A stretch of 64,000 bases of DNA from Hawksworthiomyces lignivorus. Lineage: Eukaryota; Ascomycota; Sordariomycetes; Ophiostomatales; Ophiostomataceae. The stretch covers positions 62,001-126,000 of the forward strand of contig NTMA01000101.1 in NCBI GenBank assembly GCA_002917075.1, in the 5' to 3' direction. Shown in pieces: positions 43,105 through 63,300 of the stretch (positions are counted from its first letter, which is position 1; each line of letters begins with the position of its first letter). The position numbers and the translations under genes were made by a program. The notes beneath the pieces are model-generated. The model was not told the DNA's origin and did no database searches. It was given only the letters and a program-made list of their open reading frames with translations.

Positions 43105-43914
43105 ATGCTCTATTTCGCTTTCGGCAGCAACTTGTGGTTGCACCAGATGGCCCAGCGCTGTCCTAATAACCGCTACATCGGCCGTGCTATCCTCCCCGAC
43201 TACTGCTGGCAGATCAACCAGCGAGGATTCGCCAACGTCTTCCGCCGCAGCGGCAACTGCGTCCACGGCCTCGTCTACTGGGTCGACGCCGACGACGAGG
43301 ACCGCCTCGACCGCAGCGAGGGTGTCCGCACCGGCGCTTATAGCAAGGCATACCTCGATGTCCTCCTCTACCCGGCCGCTTCAGACCTGCAAAAATACTC
43401 CGGCCGCGTCCTGCAGATACTAGCTGCCTCCCGGGACGGCATCCCTCCGCCTGAGCAACGGCCCTACGTCGAGAAGAAGGTGCTCGTCTATCTGAGCACA
43501 GACTACATCAAGCCGGGCTCCCCGCGCGAAGAGTATATCCACCGCATAAACGAGGGAATCCGCAATGCAGTCGCTCTTGGCGTACCGCCAGCCTTCTTCA
43601 CCAATGCAGTCCGTCCGCTGGTGCCGGCCGAGCGTGGCGATCACGGCCGCCGCTCTTCGCCGCAGCAACGCTCATCAAGACCACCGGTCAAGGAAGGACG
43701 GAGGCGGCGACTTAGAGCGCGCAGCTTGCCAGGTGATACCATCGAAGCTCGGCGGGACCAACGTCGCGGAATCTCAGATTGGGGAGATTCTCTTATAAGC
43801 CGGCTTGGCGCCAGAGCGGCCTGGCCATCTCTTAGTGGCAATCGACTCGGCAGGGGTTCGCTGCCATCGCCGCGGATCATAGATGGGGATATAATATCAC
43901 GCCCTCGCATCTGA
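43105..43914 (+). CDS. Gamma-glutamyl cyclotransferase-fold protein (GGCT-1)
   Basis: A single-exon gene of 269 residues. GGCT-fold enzymes release 5-oxoproline from gamma-glutamyl amines, or remove gamma-glutamyl protecting groups (as BtrG does in butirosin synthesis). The glycine-rich substrate loop YFAFGSNL is at residues 3-10 and the catalytic-type Glu is in LDRSEGV (Glu72). After the core comes a segment KVLVYLSTDYIKPGSPREEY, then RINEGIRNAVALGVP, which is also present in GGCT-2. The last 90 residues are Arg/Ser-rich and disordered. The start codon sits directly before the conserved first strand (MLYFAFGSN), which fixes it. It lies 701 bases upstream of amidoligase AMD-1 on the same strand. 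Confidence 0.9.
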   Translation: MLYFAFGSNLWLHQMAQRCPNNRYIGRAILPDYCWQINQRGFANVFRRSGNCVHGLVYWVDADDEDRLDRSEGVRTGAYSKAYLDVLLYPAASDLQKYSGRVLQILAASRDGIPPPEQRPYVEKKVLVYLSTDYIKPGSPREEYIHRINEGIRNAVALGVPPAFFTNAVRPLVPAERGDHGRRSSPQQRSSRPPVKEGRRRRLRARSLPGDTIEARRDQRRGISDWGDSLISRLGARAAWPSLSGNRLGRGSLPSPRIIDGDIISRPRI

Positions 43915-44615
43915 TTACCTGTGGACTGCATGGCTGCATACATGGCTGTTGAAGATGAAGTCATTTTGCGCAATGCGCTGTGTTACCCTACGAGTGCAAA
44001 TCGGAGGCTGATCACGGGGCGCATCTCACTGTAATTTTACTGGTTGATATAAATATATTGTGACAATTGCAAACGGTCACTCTAAAGCTATTAGTTTTTT
44101 TTCCCTTTTTGGCAGAGGACCCATCAACGTGGGCGGTTTCTAAAAAACAGGGCGTCCGTTTACAGAGGGTTGGGCTCACAAGGCTGAGGTCCCACACCAC
44201 ACAAAAGCACACGGTATCGGTAACTGTGTAAGCCCTACCCTTCTTATCCCAACAAAGCACCAAATATTGAAACTCACTGCAAGAAGCCAGCCTGATCGTG
44301 GCTTACTGCAGCTATGGGCATTTGCTGGCCAAGTCCACCGTCTGGTCTTAGGCCTACCATGTCTTCGTCACGATCCATGTGACAGCTAGCTAGGAGACGT
44401 GGCGCTGCACGTGCTCATGGATGTCGCAGAATATGTGTTCAACGACATGTTCTAAAGGCTAGGCATTTTACGGACACAATGTAAAGTAGGTGAAAGAAAC
44501 CACAGATAAAGCGTTTGCCTTGCGAGTCAACATACTTTTCTAGAATAGAAGCGGCACATGACTTTGTGCAATCCTAGCCATCTCGTACATACTGTCTTCG
44601 GCCATTCTATTCATC
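43915..44615. other. GGCT-1 to AMD-1 spacer
   Basis: AT-rich spacer with the GGCT-1 3' UTR and the AMD-1 promoter. No gene or RNA recognised. Confidence 0.6.
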
Positions 44616-45748
44616 ATGGGATCTAACATCTCTGTTTCCTATGACTTTGGTATCGAGATTGAGCTTATTGGGTGTCCACGAACGCACAGGCCAGGACGAA
44701 GAGAGCATTACGCAGACCTCGCCAGAGCCTTGAATAGTAGTTTGCACGAAACAAAGGCCATAGCAGACAGACTCGACCAGCGGTATCGCAAACATCCCGA
44801 GCACTACGACAAATGGTTTATCACCAAGGACGGATCATTGGGAGACCCCACACTAGGAGGTAAGTGCAGTCCAAAGAGGGACCCGGGATCCGTAGAGAAG
44901 AGGAATTCATATTTTTAGTCCTCATAAGACTAAAAAGCCCTATGTCTCCAGTGCCTTTAGAAGTTGTTTCCCCCATCTTCCCCATAGAAGGCACTTGGAT
45001 GCATGAAATCCAGGCGTTCTGGACGGGATGGGACAGGATCTTTTACGAACCAGAAATAAGCACATTGTGCGGTACCCATATTCATGTGTCGCCCGCAGAC
45101 ACGCATGAATACAGCCTCAGTCAGCTACGGAAAATTGCTCTCGGTGTCATTCTGTACGAGCCGCTAGTGTTGCAAGTGCTTCCGCGCCACCGGAGAAGAA
45201 ACGCTTACTGCAGGCCTAATACGAAATATTCTAAAGATCCTCGCATCCTTGCAATCAAGTCCCATGCCAAGGGTGGTGGATTATGGATTTTGAACGGCCC
45301 AAGTAACCCCGTTGATCACTTTAGCTTTGTTAGGAGGCTAATACAGGCGGCGCATGACAATAATGACTTGCGTAACCTGTTGCAGAGCGGAAATGACCAC
45401 GACAGGCGTGTCCTCTGGAACTTTAACAATACATGCGACGATAGCTCCGGCTCAATTGAGTTTCGAGGACCTCCTGGGGTGAGAAACGCAAAGGATGCCG
45501 CCATTTGGATCCTGTTCACAGTCGGATTCATTGATATGTGTCTTACTATGGTATGTTGTTCTCAATTGCCCCCCTCTGAAAAGCGTTTTTTGCGTGTGCT
45601 GATTGCGTTGTTCTCAATACAGGATGATTTGAGCCTGTTTAATGGAAGCCAGAGCATGGAAGCCTTTTGGGCTAATCTACATCGATGTACTGAGCAGATC
45701 TCCAGTGGCATCAATTTTCCTCTCGACTGGTCGAGAATGCCTTCGTGA
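44616..45748 (+). CDS. Amidoligase-family protein (PF12224 type), AMD-1
   Basis: Exons are 44616-44859, 44952-45550 and 45623-45748, 322 residues. Amidoligases of this family share the glutamine-synthetase-like COOH-NH2 ligase fold and are predicted to join a carboxylate to an amine using ATP. Family motifs are in order: FGIEIELI (11-18; Glu14, Glu16), KWFITKDGSL (66-75), PLEVVSPI (83-90), CGTHIHVSP (121-129), NAYCRPN (165-171) and GSIEFRGPPG (248-257), followed by a hydrophobic helix. These give the glutamates, histidines and arginine expected for the metal/ATP and phosphate sites. Introns sit at the same motif-relative positions and phases (1 and 0) as in AMD-2. Codon GC is lower than in the housekeeping genes. 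Substrate unknown. Confidence 0.88.
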
Positions 45749-46163
45749 GAGGTTACCTATAGACCAAAGGGATTGTATTTAGACAAAAAAAAAAATCCTA
45801 GGTATGTCTACGACGGGTTGAGGATTTTGTGTAGAATATGTTTTTAGTACATTTATACTCTGTTAGTTGGGTTGCTTTAGGATGCGGATGACTCGAGCCG
45901 CTGTTCGAAGGTTTTATGTGGGATCAAGTTAGACATTCAATTAGTTTCCAGTTAGTTGTTTAAATTCGTCATACAGCTACCGGGACATGCTCGGTAACAA
46001 TAGAAAATCAACCCTTGAGCACATATACTTGTGTAATGTACAAGATGGTAGGCTGCGTTTCATTCGCCCTCTGGTGTTGGTCGTCTAAATGTTTGGAATG
46101 ATGCATACTAGTGTTATCCTGCTATTACCCTTTGCTATCATGTATACACCTTCACGTTTGCCA
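45749..46163. other. Convergent spacer between AMD-1 and AMD-2
   Basis: AT-rich tail-to-tail spacer of 415 bases holding two 3' UTRs. No repeat or inverted-repeat boundary was noticed. Confidence 0.6.
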
Positions 46164-47327
46164 CTAGTTAGACGACTCGTTAAGCTGCGTGTAAGTGGCA
46201 GGAAGGAGGTGTTGAAGCGAAAGACTTGTGGCTGCGCCCTTGACGGCTGAATAGAATTCTTCGTTGGTGTAAGACGGCAGCGCGTCTGGTGTACGTATAT
46301 GCCTCTTTGTACAGTGAATCTTTGTTAGTAACTCCATGTTGGCTTTTTAAAGAAATAAAATTTCTTATCTATTGCTCCGTTTTGATTTGCCTTTTCAACC
46401 TACAACTTCCCTCTTACCTTGGTGAGGAGCCAGTGCAACAGCGCGATGGCAAACGCGATCCAGCGCTTGGTTCGGACCTTGCCGCGCAGGAACCGTCCAC
46501 CACGGAACTCGATCGTGCCAGACTGGCCTGGTAGGGTATTCTCGAAGTTCCACAGCACGTAGCGGTTGCGCTGCATGAGGGCGCAGAGTGCGTTGCAGTC
46601 ACGGGCGGCCAAGATGACCGCGGCGAGACGGGAGGCACCACTTTCGCAAGCGCTGCGCAGCGGCTGTGAGCTGGCTGAGTTGGGGAGGCAGTAGTTATTG
46701 CTCATGCGGTCGCTCATGAGCATGTTGTGAATACAGCTCTCGAAGTAGACAATGCCAAATGCGACCGTCTTTAGCTCACTGAGCGTGAAACGGTGGCGCA
46801 CGCCCTTGGATAGATGGATGTGACTGCCGCACTTGCCAGAGCGCTGTGGCATGTGGAAGACGGCGGCCATGGCAGTCCAGAATACGTCGATTTCATTCTC
46901 CCAAGTGCTGTGGAGGCTGAGGATGGGCGAGACCGCCTCAATCGGCACTAAAGTGCGCTCTGTGTGGCAGAGGTAAGCATTGTGAGAGATACAGGAGGGA
47001 AACAAAAGAGTAAATGGGGTGAAGATGCGAAGGAAGATGGATAGCTTCTTGCATCAACAAGTTTTATTTTTTAGTTGGCCGTGTTTCCTTACTCTCTTCA
47101 TCTGCCAGGCTCAGAGAGCCATCCCTGGTAATCCACCATTTGTTATAGTGCTCGGGGTGCTTGCTATACCGACCATCAAGACCGTCTGCCGCAGCCTTGA
47201 GGCTTCTCTTCCTTAGAGACGCGGCAATCTTCTGGTAGTAGAGAGCATTGAGGGTATGTAGGGGTTCACGAATCTTGTGTGGCTCTGCAATCATTTCAAT
47301 CTCGACGCCGAAATGGTAGTTCGTCAT
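46164..47327 (-). CDS. Amidoligase-family protein (PF12224 type), AMD-2
   Basis: Exons in reading order are 47327-47093, 46959-46418 and 46304-46164, 305 residues. It is a paralogue of AMD-1: FGVEIEMI (6-13), the shared block YSKHPEHYNKWWITRDGSL (54-72), PIEAVSPI (84-91), CGSHIHLS (122-129), NNYCLPN (166-172) and GTIEFRGG (226-233) keep the presumed catalytic residues. Compared with AMD-1 it lacks part of the variable region before WNFxNT. The third exon, found by splicing across a GTTACTAAC branch point, restores a C-terminal helix region (DALPSYTNEEFYSAVKGAAT) equivalent to AMD-1's last exon; without it the protein would end abruptly in the intron. It is divergent from GGCT-2, sharing a 944-base upstream region. 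Confidence 0.87.
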
Positions 47328-48271
47328 GATGGGCGAAGATAAAAGACTGTTTGAGATACAAGAAAATGCTGCTACGTCGGTAATGATGAAGACATAAAAA
47401 AGAGCATTGTCTGGAGAGTACAGTAATAATCAAAGCAGCGAGAAGAAACGGGCAACATGGCGGCTTCTATCTCAGGCGACTTATACGTGTATTTCTATAC
47501 AGCCTTGTCTACAGCTCCCTATAAGAAAAGCCCTAAAATGGATGCATGCGCCTCTGTAGAGGCGGTCACCAACACCGCACTACATGGGAGAGCCTTTTTG
47601 GCATGCCACGACCTTTCTTCTTGTCGAATCTAATGCATGGTAGTGGTGATTAGAACGAAGAATGCGTTGAGTCATCTATATCTACCTTCTGTTTCCCTTT
47701 TTCGCCCTAAATCATCCGTGGTCGACGACGTGGATGGTCTTAGAGTCAGCCTCGAGTGAGAGGAGGCGGAGTGGAAGGGGCAAGGTTAGGGGGTCACGAT
47801 AGGCAAACTTGTTCTCCGGTGCTGTTGGGATGCTGCCCAATCTCGCATATTAAGCCTTGTTGTATTATAATATGTAGTTTTGCACAGGTTCTTTATTTTG
47901 CCTCAAAAAACGCCTCTGTCCAATTGGCAGTATATATAGCGCATGCCTGTCAGCCGTGGCGCTCGCAACTGAAGCTGATTTGTGGACAAGACAGAAGCTG
48001 CCTAAAAGACCAATTTTGTTGTCAGCAGCTGTTTTGCGGCCATCCGACACAGTGCGGCTGGGCAGCACACAAGATAGTTCGCCCACACCACTTGCTCTCT
48101 CTTCCCAACACGTCCGTTCGTGTCAATACTCGACCGAGGGGAGCTATACTTCAACTCTCAGAGTCATCCGCTTGGCCGTCTCGGATAATAAACATTTCAT
48201 AGAATCGAAAGACGAAGAGCACGGAATCCAGTTCTTCAGTTCATTATTAGGAGCAATTGTTCTATCCTACC
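47328..48271. other. Divergent promoter of AMD-2 and GGCT-2
   Basis: A shared upstream region for the two head-to-head genes, suitable for co-regulation. No open frame of note; a short AT-rich TATATATAG lies at 47931-47939. No recognisable transcription-factor site was singled out. Confidence 0.55.
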
Positions 48272-49768
48272 ATGCTCAACTCTTTACCAAATTGGATCAT
48301 GTCGCGTAATCCTTTCGCAGTGGCGAAACCGGTGTACGCCCCCCAGCAGTTCTATCAAGATGACCCCATCCAGCTTTACTTTGCCTACGGCAGCAACCTT
48401 CACGTTGAGCAGATGGGGCGGCGCTGCCCCGGGAGCGAGTTTGTCGGCCTGGCGACTCTACACGGCTACCGCTGGCAGATCAACGAGCGCGGGGTGGCTA
48501 ATGTGGTACCGGTGGACGATCGCGACAACAGCAATGAGAGCAGTATGGTAGAGGGTCTGCTGTATCGCGTGACGCCCCAGGATGAGGCGGCCCTGGACCG
48601 CTTCGAGGGCGTATCGCGCCAGCTCTATCAGAAGCAGCTGCTGGCCGTGCAGGTCACAGAACACCCGCTTTATTCCAACCGCCCAACAATAGCCGTGAGC
48701 CATGACTTGGCGCAGAGGCTGGGAGGCAGCAGCACCGAGCTACTACCAAGTATTTCTAAAGAGAGCACACAATCCGACGAAATGATCTTGGATCCGCCGG
48801 CGACATACTCAGAGACAGTGCTGGTGTACGTGAGCGAATTTTACGTGCAGGACGGCCCCATCCGCGACGAGTATGTTGGCAGGATGCGAGGTGCGGTAAA
48901 ATACGCGGCTGCCCTGGGCGTGTCGCAGGGGTATGTGGATCGGGAGATTGCGCCGCACCTGAGGTCGCCGGCCAAGCAGAGCAAGCATAAAAGCAGCAGA
49001 AGTGGAAGCAGCAAGGTTGGCAGCCGCAGACGGCGGAACGGCAAGTTAGTGGCCAAGGCCAAAAACACCGATGCAACGCGGCTGCCAGGGCCTGAGAGCA
49101 ATAGCGAAGAGGTTGCTAAAGTCCTGGAGTCTCGTCTTACTGCTGTGGGCGACCATACTGTGACTCACACCGATGAAGACATTAAAGACAAAGATGCAGA
49201 AGAAGAAGAAGCAACTGAGCAAGTATCAGACGCAGAAGTAGAGCCGGAGCAGGCCGAAGAAGCAGATGAACTGAGAGCTGAGAATCGGCGGCCCCACGAG
49301 GAGACGGGCGCTCGCTTCGACCCCAGCGTCCTAGCACTTCTGGCACAGCGCATGGAGGAAGAGGCAAATGATATCGATTCTGACACGAAGCAGGACAAGG
49401 ACGGTGCTGAGAATATTAGCACTCATTCGACCTCCGGGGCCAGCGGAAGTCCTGTTTACATCGTCGTGCTGCAGGAGCCTATTTTCGGGTATAGCATTGG
49501 GGCAGCTACGCTTAGTCTTGCGCTTGCGAACGAGCTCGCCATGAAACACTTCCGAGATGCTTGCGCGCGCATCGGCGGCAGTGAAAGCGGCATTCCCCAA
49601 GACGCCGTGATTGGGCCCCCCGTCATGACCGAAGAGGAGCTCAGTGAAGAGCCCGGACAGTGCAGCTGTACTATGAATGGCAATCGTTGCTTTCTCTTCC
49701 GCGTGATGCTGCCAAATAACACCGACATGGTAAAGGTCTGGGTCACGATGCAAGAGTTGCTAGCATGA
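48272..49768 (+). CDS. GGCT-fold protein with long C-terminal extension (GGCT-2)
   Basis: A single-exon gene of 498 residues from the first ATG (48272); a second ATG at 48299 is equally possible. The GGCT core has YFAYGSNL (36-43) and the catalytic-type Glu in LDRFEGV (Glu112), and shares with GGCT-1 the RWQIN/WQINxRG, ANV and VLVYVSEFYVQDGPIRDEY-to-AALGV segments. A loop of about 40 residues is inserted before the last. After residue 240 come a Lys/Arg/Ser-rich stretch, a long acidic Glu/Asp run and a terminal module (SPVYIVVLQEPIFGYSIGAA, an ALANELAMKHF helix, then VKVWVTMQELL) that looks like a small alpha/beta domain. Role as for GGCT-1. Amide hydrolysis activity is inferred, not shown. 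Confidence 0.88.
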   Translation: MLNSLPNWIMSRNPFAVAKPVYAPQQFYQDDPIQLYFAYGSNLHVEQMGRRCPGSEFVGLATLHGYRWQINERGVANVVPVDDRDNSNESSMVEGLLYRVTPQDEAALDRFEGVSRQLYQKQLLAVQVTEHPLYSNRPTIAVSHDLAQRLGGSSTELLPSISKESTQSDEMILDPPATYSETVLVYVSEFYVQDGPIRDEYVGRMRGAVKYAAALGVSQGYVDREIAPHLRSPAKQSKHKSSRSGSSKVGSRRRRNGKLVAKAKNTDATRLPGPESNSEEVAKVLESRLTAVGDHTVTHTDEDIKDKDAEEEEATEQVSDAEVEPEQAEEADELRAENRRPHEETGARFDPSVLALLAQRMEEEANDIDSDTKQDKDGAENISTHSTSGASGSPVYIVVLQEPIFGYSIGAATLSLALANELAMKHFRDACARIGGSESGIPQDAVIGPPVMTEEELSEEPGQCSCTMNGNRCFLFRVMLPNNTDMVKVWVTMQELLA

Positions 49769-50052: not shown

Positions 50053-51565
50053 TCAAGCATTCGACGCTCTTTCAGTCGCCATATATCTTTTCACACTCGA
50101 GTTATATAAAAGCTCTCCCGATATTATGCCTCTTGCGGTACCAATGGTGATGAAGATCCAAAGAAAAATAGTAGATACACCAAGAATCTGCCAAGTGTTA
50201 GGAGCTGCCATTGCTATCATGTTATGTTTTAGGTAATGCGTCTTACCATGCCAATGACTTTGAGAAATTCGGCAGAGAGCTCGTCTGCTATGGCAATAGT
50301 CGCGAGGGACAGCATGCCTAATGGAAAGGTAAATCCCCACCAGCCCATATTAAATGGGAAGTGCTTCTGATAAAGGATTGACCCGACTGCATATGCAAGC
50401 CAGGCCAAGCCATATGCCCAGAAGACTATGGACAGAATGGCGCCTATGACATAAACGACTTCGCCGGCGACGTTGTACCGCAGGAAGCCAGTTTCTGGAA
50501 ACACATTCGCCGCGACGATGCTCAACCGCATGATTCTTTTTATTTAGCTGAAAATTGACTGTTATGAGAGCCAAGGCCAGGGGCAAACTCACGCGAAGCT
50601 AGCAATTCCTATAGGAGACAGCGGCAAGAACACGCTCACGATGACTTCCCGCGATGGGAGACTGTAGAGCGTGAGCCGCTGGTAATATATGACCAAGACG
50701 AGCGACGTCAGACACATGCCTATTCCCCAAAGGCCATAGCAGGCAACGATGGTCCATAGCGCGTGTCGAGGGTTTGGAAGAATGGTGGCAACCAGGCTCC
50801 CGCTGGCTGCAGCCGCCAGGGTGGACGAGAGCGGCATCAGCTGCAGAGCATTGATTGCGTTCAATTCGTTTCGCGTGCCGCTCGTCATGCTTTCCAGATG
50901 TCAGTTTGAGGCAAAGTTCGCAGCCCTCCCTAGCTAAAGGCTTACATGGTGTGAGGTACGAGGAAGGTCACAGCCAGAGCAAGCGATACTTCGATAAACC
51001 ACAGCACCCAAGCGAAGGTGCTGGTCCAGGAGCCCCAAACTGGAGCGCAAACGAAAACAAACATGTTAATCAAAGTACCGAACCCGATTGGGATGGCTCC
51101 GAGAAAGAGGGAGTGATGTGGGTCTCTTCGCATCATGTTCCATATCTCAGGCCATACGCTATAACGAATAATCGACATGACGACTGCGAAGGCGAAGAGA
51201 AATACGTTCAGAGCGAAGACTATTATGGAAAGCCAATAGAGCCATATTCCATTATAAGGTAAACGATTCAGGAGCGAAGCAGTGACGCCCGTACCCATGG
51301 TCACAGCAAACCATCTGCGTTGGGCCAATATTAGATCAGAAGTCATGACAATGGACAGATGTGTGCTTGGGCCATCTTACGATGGTGAGAAGTGCCGGAT
51401 CGTCTCTTTCCACACGAGTCGAGTCTTTTGTGATGTTGTTACCTGCTGCTCTGCTTGCGCGACGTTGTTTGACTCTTCCCAGTATTCAGTTAATGAGGGG
51501 TCGGTCGTATGGACGATAGTGAGCTGTGCTTCTTGCACATTGTCACCGTCTCCCGAGATGCTCAT
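50053..51565 (-). CDS. SLAC1/TehA/Ssu1-type transporter (malate/sulfite/anion efflux)
   Basis: Exons in reading order are 51565-51381, 51314-50946, 50889-50593, 50535-50247 and 50187-50053, 424 residues. After a hydrophilic N-terminus comes WFAVTMGTGVTASLL, the first-helix signature of the C4-dicarboxylate/malic acid transport family (PF03595). About ten membrane helices follow, including MRRDPHHSLFLGAIPIGFGT, ILPNPRHALW and FNMGWWGFTFPLGML. Family members export malate, sulfite or other anions through a gated pore. Yeast Ssu1 and fission yeast Mae1 are the nearest functional models, but the substrate cannot be told apart here. The gene is convergent with GGCT-2, 284 bases away, so it may belong to the same accessory unit. 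Confidence 0.88.
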
Positions 51566-63218: not shown

Positions 63219-63300
63219 GGGTATATAGCTCAGGGGTAGAGCGCTCGCTTCGCATAGTCGAATATGCGAGAGGCCTCCGGTTCGATTCCGGATATATCCA
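63219..63300 (+). tRNA. tRNA-Ala(CGC) with a 10-base intron
   Basis: A complete cloverleaf is seen. The acceptor stem GGGTATA/TATATCC pairs fully and includes the G3-U70 wobble that identifies alanine tRNAs; the discriminator is A (63300). The D-arm is GCTC/GAGC, the anticodon stem CTCGC/GCGAG and the T-arm TCCGG-TTCGATT-CCGGA. The anticodon CGC is at 63251-63253. A 10-base intron (about 63255-63264) sits one base 3' of the anticodon, the standard nuclear position, so the gene needs tRNA splicing. The CCA is not encoded. Box B is canonical (GGTTCGATTCC). Confidence 0.93.

What the first reader, a model, noticed from the sequence alone, without database searches (positions are those of the whole stretch)
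43105..49768. Amidoligase/GGCT quartet: two amide-bond formers bracketed by two cyclotransferases
Seen: four adjacent genes, GGCT-1(+), AMD-1(+), AMD-2(-), GGCT-2(+), with intact signature residues in all four. Known: PF12224-type amidoligases have a glutamine-synthetase-like fold predicted to form amides. GGCT-fold enzymes split gamma-glutamyl amides, and in butirosin synthesis a ligase (BtrJ) adds and a GGCT (BtrG) removes a gamma-glutamyl protecting group. An association of amidoligases with GGCT-like genes has been noted in comparative genomics. Inference: the locus makes and trims a gamma-glutamyl (or similar) amide on a metabolite, amine or peptide. The doubled pair hints at two sequential amide steps, or at two parallel substrates. 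I cannot tell whether a doubled fungal quartet has been described.
Basis: partly seen in the sequence, partly recalled or inferred. Interest (0 to 1): 0.87.

Follow-up and report, generated by a model that had tools for sequence, protein, structure and literature searches.

The report
Fungal amide-making and amide-splitting gene cluster
Four neighbouring fungal genes encode two enzymes that look built to form amide bonds and two that look built to cut off gamma-glutamyl groups, and relatives of members of the set share contigs in other moulds, which points to an unstudied make-and-trim chemistry.

Summary
Window 43105-49768 of a 43.7 Mb fungal genome carries GGCT-1(+), AMD-1(+), AMD-2(-), GGCT-2(+); all pass Pfam's cut-offs (GGCT-1 narrowly) and keep the catalytic motifs. 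I modelled both AMD genes with three exons. An AlphaFold model of an AMD-2 orthologue (pLDDT 92) has the glutamine-synthetase fold, with YbdK, glutamine synthetase and glutamate-cysteine ligase tied as best matches; GGCT-2 best matches human gamma-glutamyl cyclotransferase. It is not a local accident: trees split both families into old paralogue clades, and 10 of 28 named fungal contigs with an AMD hit also hold a GGCT hit, two of them at consecutive locus tags. A GGCT-2-type protein is on all 10, GGCT-1 on 2, both AMDs on 3. So the constant part is GGCT-2 plus one or two ligases, not two fixed pairs; the full quartet was seen only here. GGCT-2 also carries an unnamed C-terminal domain (9 of the 10). 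Amidoligase-GGCT neighbours are known in bacteria and phages; my searches of the held papers showed no description of this fungal form. Substrate and chemistry remain inference. New variant of a known kind.

The parts
43105..43914 (+). GGCT-1, 269 aa, one exon; gamma-glutamyl cyclotransferase family, catalytic-type Glu72 in LDRSEGV
   Evidence: Pfam PF06094 24.0 bits; profile A4 matches human GGCT 2pn7 E 5.5e-12; GGCT-1 clade in tree
44616..45748 (+). AMD-1, 322 aa, exons 44616-44859, 44952-45550, 45623-45748; PF12224 amidoligase
   Evidence: long branch (1.41) in the AMD tree but 23 of 24 invariant columns kept
46164..47327 (-). AMD-2, 305 aa, exons 47327-47093, 46959(or 46947)-46418, 46304-46164; PF12224 amidoligase
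   Evidence: AMD-2 clade with Fusarium, Colletotrichum and Xylaria relatives (support 100/99); 24 of 24 invariant columns kept
47328..48271 (.). 944-base divergent region between the starts of AMD-2 and GGCT-2 (candidate shared promoter)
   Evidence: from the gene models; no 8-10-base word is shared by all three upstream regions of the locus, so co-regulation is not shown
48272..49768 (+). GGCT-2, 498 aa, one exon; GGCT domain about residues 31-236 with catalytic-type Glu112
49427..49765 (+). uncharacterised C-terminal domain of GGCT-2 (residues 386-498), shared by 9 of 10 GGCT-2 relatives found on AMD contigs

Best explanation
An enzyme cassette of filamentous ascomycetes for putting on and taking off a gamma-glutamyl (or closely similar) amide. 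AMD-1 and AMD-2 are glutamine-synthetase-fold ligases that would use ATP to activate a carboxylate as an acyl-phosphate and join it to an amine, as YbdK, glutamate-cysteine ligase and glutamine synthetase do (recalled chemistry). GGCT-2, and GGCT-1 where present, would later release that group as 5-oxoproline through their catalytic glutamate. The two ligases are old paralogues, most simply two acceptor amines or two successive steps, served by one constant cyclotransferase (GGCT-2) whose extra domain may fix the substrate or the partner. Shown: families, motifs, folds, recurrent co-location, paralogue clades. Inferred: the reaction, its order, the gamma-glutamyl identity, the role of the extra domain.
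Against: No substrate or activity is known. Sequence profiles gave no solved relative for AMD at E<=10, and comparison of the AMD profile with single YbdK and GlnA sequences was not significant, so the ligase reading rests on fold, motifs and the PF12224 name. GGCT-1 relatives occur in Grosmannia clavigera and Ophiostoma piceae, species from which the AMD search returned no hit, so GGCT-1 seems able to do without an AMD. Of the 28 AMD contigs 18 showed no GGCT hit, and of the 91 GGCT-2 hits 82 were not on a contig with an AMD hit (90% clusters and word-based search may hide some). AMD-1 evolves fast (branch 1.41) and has lower GC3 (0.53) than the other five genes measured (0.65-0.83). No shared upstream words were found.
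Confidence: 0.42

Rival explanations
1. The ligases attach an amino acid or peptide to a protein side chain (an isopeptide tag) and the cyclotransferases clear the gamma-glutamyl remnant: a protein tagging and untagging system.
For: The GS-fold matches include Dop and PafA of the Pup tagging system, though at weak E-values (2.8e-3 and 5.0e-3). GGCT-2 carries a disordered linker and an extra conserved domain that could recruit a partner. Human GGACT, of the same fold, acts on gamma-glutamyl-epsilon-lysine (recalled).
Confidence: 0.15
2. A secondary-metabolite tailoring or protecting-group module: a gamma-glutamyl group is added to an amine intermediate and later removed, the logic of butirosin.
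For: Ligases plus cyclotransferase(s) fit add-and-remove chemistry; patchy presence across fungi is typical of specialised metabolism (recalled).
Against: Of 30 further open frames scanned (29 flanking, one inside the locus) none is a PKS, NRPS or terpene synthase; the one KR-domain match (24.0 bits, cut-off 22.6) is on a short-chain dehydrogenase that scores higher as adh_short. Neighbours include thymidylate synthase, fructose-bisphosphate aldolase, an OST3/OST6 piece and a CH-domain protein. Not all frames of the window were scanned.
Confidence: 0.15
3. The GGCTs are ordinary gamma-glutamyl dipeptide or glutathione-turnover enzymes and the AMDs do unrelated chemistry; proximity reflects tandem duplication and slow decay of linkage.
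For: GGCT-1 occurs without an AMD hit in Grosmannia and Ophiostoma; 82 of the 91 GGCT-2 hits are not on a contig with an AMD hit.
Against: AMD-GGCT contig sharing recurs in Xylariaceae, Fusarium, Colletotrichum, Rhypophila and Aspergillus, and phages and firmicutes show the same pairing. Tandem duplication does not bring two different families together.
Confidence: 0.2

Closest known systems
Amidoligase_2 (PF12224) near GGCT/AIG2 (PF06094) in bacteria and phages (Iyer et al. 2009, as cited by PMC11253131, PMC11318856 and PMC10945688; the 2009 paper itself was not held)
   Same: Same two families close together: 4 of 4 phage records opened (of 35 with a weak amidoligase hit) have a GGCT gene, directly or one small gene after the amidoligase in three and five genes away in the Vibrio phage; phage UFV-P2 too. 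In 79 of 80 firmicute loci (the best 80 of 257, all near kin of one prophage gene) a GGCT frame lies in the stretch held, up to 4 kb either side.
   Different: In the phage records opened I saw one motif-bearing PF12224 gene and one GGCT; UFV-P2 adds COOH-NH2 ligase, ATP-grasp and GATase genes. Firmicute loci were not screened for a true second amidoligase. The fungal set has two motif-bearing amidoligases from old paralogue clades, up to two GGCTs, a GGCT-2 C-terminal domain, introns and mixed strands.
YbdK / GCS2 carboxylate-amine ligases, plant glutamate-cysteine ligase, glutamine synthetase
   Same: Best structural matches, tied; same G-x-E-x-E, H-x-H and E-x-R motifs in YbdK and GlnA.
   Different: 10-16% identity over the structural alignments; not reached by sequence profiles.
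Human gamma-glutamyl cyclotransferase (GGCT, 2pn7/2rbh/3cry)
   Different: Fungal proteins carry extra tails; GGCT-2 has an additional domain.
Butirosin BtrJ/BtrG (recalled)
   Same: Add-then-remove gamma-glutamyl logic.
   Different: BtrJ is an ATP-grasp ligase working with a carrier-protein-bound chain (recalled); AMD is GS-fold and no carrier protein was seen among the frames scanned.

Membership tests
PF12224 Amidoligase_2 | Pfam score over the curated cut-off | tested here: met
   AMD-1 66.8 bits; AMD-2, frame holding exon 2, 35.7 bits; cut-off 22
PF12224 Amidoligase_2 | GS-type active-site motifs E-x-E, H-x-H, E-x-R | tested here: met
   23 of 24 and 24 of 24 invariant columns
PF12224 Amidoligase_2 | glutamine-synthetase-like fold | tested here: met
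   model of the relative P0021, not of the window proteins themselves
PF12224 Amidoligase_2 | ATP-dependent amide formation | not testable with these tools
   needs an enzyme assay
Gamma-glutamyl cyclotransferase (PF06094 / GGCT fold) | Pfam score over the curated cut-off | tested here: met
   GGCT-1 24.0 (narrow), GGCT-2 34.3, cut-off 22.8
Gamma-glutamyl cyclotransferase (PF06094 / GGCT fold) | YGSNL loop and catalytic glutamate | tested here: met
   GGCT-1 has YFAFGSNL, GGCT-2 YFAYGSNL
Gamma-glutamyl cyclotransferase (PF06094 / GGCT fold) | GGCT fold | tested here: met
   GGCT-2 only; GGCT-1 was not modelled
Gamma-glutamyl cyclotransferase (PF06094 / GGCT fold) | release of 5-oxoproline | not testable with these tools
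   needs an enzyme assay
Bacterial/phage amidoligase-GGCT neighbourhood | PF12224 gene close to a PF06094 gene | tested here: met
   window; contig sharing in 10 named fungi, consecutive tags in 2 of them
Bacterial/phage amidoligase-GGCT neighbourhood | accompanying ATP-grasp, COOH-NH2 ligase or GATase genes as in phage UFV-P2 | tested here: inconclusive
   none among the 30 further frames scanned, but not every frame was scanned
Butirosin BtrJ/BtrG system | ATP-grasp ligase acting on a carrier-protein thioester | tested here: not met
   AMD has the GS fold; that BtrJ is ATP-grasp is recalled

The most novel reading that the evidence does not exclude
A fungal gamma-glutamyl tag-and-untag system in which two GS-fold ligases with different acceptors feed one dedicated cyclotransferase, whose unnamed C-terminal domain delivers it to the tagged molecule (possibly a protein), with GGCT-1 as a lineage-specific second eraser.
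Probability: 0.2. Interest if true: 0.78.

Novelty: new variant of a known kind. Interest (0 to 1): 0.55.

Why it matters
PF12224 is still named a 'putative' amidoligase family and no solved sequence relative of the fungal members was found, yet the domain is enriched in some fungi (Sclerotinia and Botrytis, passage in PMC3158057). A recurrent fungal gene set that ties these ligases to GGCT-type enzymes turns an orphan ligase family into a testable make-and-trim pair: the cyclotransferase should release 5-oxoproline from whatever the ligase makes, if the gamma-glutamyl reading is right.

Tried and rejected
Two fixed ligase-eraser pairs (AMD-1 with GGCT-1, AMD-2 with GGCT-2): rejected as a rule, because AMD-1-type proteins share contigs with GGCT-2 where no GGCT-1 hit was seen (Ustulina, Xylaria, Nemania, A. 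cavernicola), and GGCT-1 shares a contig with AMD-2 but no AMD-1 hit in F. beomiforme.

Doubled amidoligase in a firmicute prophage as a parallel: record PP197246.1 labels two genes amidoligase beside a GGCT, and PMC11253131 says the same. The first (L026:2896-3621) has none of the three motifs, no Pfam match at E 0.01, matches the phage family phrog_2443 and resembles its neighbour only over 75 residues near the end, so I do not count it as a second ligase. The '80 of 80' printed for that gene is unreliable (the query can also hit the real amidoligase) and is not used.

Literature: 9 searches; two searches listed no paper, one search listed 20 of 505 and 15 of 9,522; one search was on butirosin. 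No listed title or abstract opening describes a fungal amidoligase-GGCT gene set. Passages only were read in PMC3158057, PMC8982410, PMC10945688, PMC3890496, PMC11253131 and PMC11318856. Iyer et al. 2009 is not held, so whether it mentions fungi could not be checked.
Full report
What is there. The window is G000:C4:62001-126000 of an unnamed 43.7 Mb fungal assembly. GGCT-1 (43105-43914, +) and GGCT-2 (48272-49768, +) are single open frames; AMD-1 (44616-45748, +) has three exons with GT-AG introns. The AMD-2 model (-) was completed by testing splice sites against three relatives: exons 47327-47093, 46959 or 46947-46418, and 46304-46164. Pfam places all four over its cut-offs, GGCT-1 narrowly. 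Catalytic motifs are intact in all four.

Chance and genome background. The genome has two further PF12224 places (C48, C159) and four further PF06094 places (C145, C27, C139 and, under the cut-off, C57). No PF06094 place lies on C48 or C159, so the other amidoligases have no GGCT beside them at this sensitivity. About 0.011 AMD-GGCT pairs within 10 kb are expected by chance. A whole-genome search with GGCT-2 found, besides itself, only GGCT-1 (37%) and a 709-aa frame on C139 (30%). AMD-1 and AMD-2 are 37% identical over 291 positions, the GGCTs 35% over 229: old paralogues, not a recent duplication.

Relatives and linkage. Protein searches gave 37 AMD hits, 69 GGCT-1 hits and 91 GGCT-2 hits. 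No genomic context is given, but the exact length of the longest contig serves as a fingerprint. Of 28 distinct contigs of named fungi with an AMD hit, 10 also carry a GGCT hit: Ustulina deusta, Nemania sp. NC0429, Xylaria cf. heliscus, X. telfairii, X. bambusicola, Aspergillus cavernicola, Fusarium beomiforme, F. gaditjirri, Colletotrichum trifolii and Rhypophila decipiens; 18 do not. The expectation is 1.2 with 2 GGCT genes per 45 Mb (P 1e-8) and 4.5 with a harsh 6 per 30 Mb (P 0.003); both genome sizes and gene numbers are my assumptions. AMD hits without a named fungus were left out of this count. In F. gaditjirri and C. trifolii the AMD and GGCT locus tags are consecutive. In Fusarium sp. 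DS 682 a GGCT-1 type (IL306_004485) and a GGCT-2 type (IL306_004483) have one tag between them; that gene was not seen. This is co-location by proxy, not read synteny.

Trees. The AMD tree (36 rows: 34 of 37 hits plus the two window proteins; P0006, P0030 and P0037 were left out) has an AMD-2 clade of 15 rows (100/99) and an AMD-1 group of 14 rows (93/85, just under the program's star), each counting the window protein. Nemania, X. heliscus, X. telfairii and X. scruposa have one of each on a contig of one length. Window AMD-1 has a long branch (1.41), so its exact place is unsure; the place of Rhypophila's AMD in its group is weak (83/48). The GGCT tree (58 rows, chosen from the two hit lists, with four fused proteins cut in halves) has a GGCT-1 clade of 23 rows (96/90) and a GGCT-2 clade of 32 rows (99/97). 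In the 728-aa F. fujikuroi protein P0108 the first half falls in the GGCT-1 clade and the second in the GGCT-2 clade; since another cluster named after that species holds a 477-aa GGCT-2 alone (P0133), I read it as a gene call running through two same-strand neighbours, the layout of this window. Four of four Aspergillus proteins of about 480 aa that I aligned (P0109, P0110, P0112, P0113) hold two GGCT domains head to tail; of the three split for the tree, the second half is GGCT-2-like and the first is unresolved.

Which parts are constant. On the 10 shared contigs a GGCT-2-clade protein is present on 10, an AMD-2-clade protein on 7, an AMD-1-group protein on 6, both AMDs on 3, GGCT-1 on 2 (counted with clades; Rhypophila's GGCT-2 came from the GGCT-1 search). 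The full quartet was seen only in this window. GGCT-2 is thus the hub, and the doubled-pair picture is not the rule. Nine of the ten linked GGCT-2 proteins have the C-terminal domain of residues 386-498 (A. cavernicola lacks it), against 38 of 92 proteins examined (the 91 hits plus P0087); the nine were among the rows used to build that profile, so the count describes the alignment and is not an independent test.

Comparison with what is known. The same pairing exists in phages and firmicutes: 4 of 4 phage records opened around amidoligase hits, out of 35 records with a weak hit, phage UFV-P2, and 79 of 80 firmicute loci near one prophage gene. Of four fungal AMD relatives given (P0021, P0002, P0008, P0032) all match the phage families phrog_2443 and phrog_7469, and GGCT-1 matches phrog_2520. 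PMC11253131 reports, citing Iyer et al. 2009, a predicted role in cell-wall modification for such phage genes (passage). What is particular to the fungal form is two motif-bearing ligases of old separate clades, the GGCT-2 hub with its extra domain, and its recurrence in several ascomycete groups. The searches of held papers showed no description of it; Iyer et al. 2009 could not be read.

Surroundings. Of 30 further open frames scanned (29 flanking, one inside the locus) none is a PKS, NRPS or terpene synthase; a weak KR match falls on a short-chain dehydrogenase. Just past GGCT-2 lie a SLAC1/TDT-type anion transporter, a short-chain dehydrogenase and thymidylate synthase. So the locus is not an evident part of a classical metabolite cluster, though a small stand-alone one is possible.

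Verdict. Observation confirmed; interpretation partly supported; a new variant of a known kind, worth an enzyme assay.

Noticed in passing
50229-51376 (-): A SLAC1/TDT-type anion transporter gene in pieces lies right beside GGCT-2; fungal members include sulfite exporters (recalled). Whether it travels with the cluster elsewhere could not be tested.
   Followed up: no
L026:2896-3621 (record PP197246.1): A prophage gene labelled amidoligase has none of the amidoligase motifs and resembles the true amidoligase next to it only over 75 residues near the end; the label seems to be an annotation error carried by a phage family profile.
   Followed up: partly
P0009, P0018, P0020, P0031: Fungal amidoligases are named 'swim zinc finger domain protein' in public records although the listed Pfam domain is PF12224 only: probably a propagated misnaming.
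   Followed up: no
P0109, P0110, P0112, P0113: Aspergillus proteins of about 480 aa carry two GGCT domains head to tail in one chain, which suggests that two cyclotransferase units act together.
   Followed up: partly
P0042, P0043: Ophiostoma piceae has two GGCT-1-clade proteins on a contig of one length but no AMD hit, so the family also duplicates without amidoligases being seen.
   Followed up: no
63219-63300: tRNA-Cys gene.
   Followed up: no
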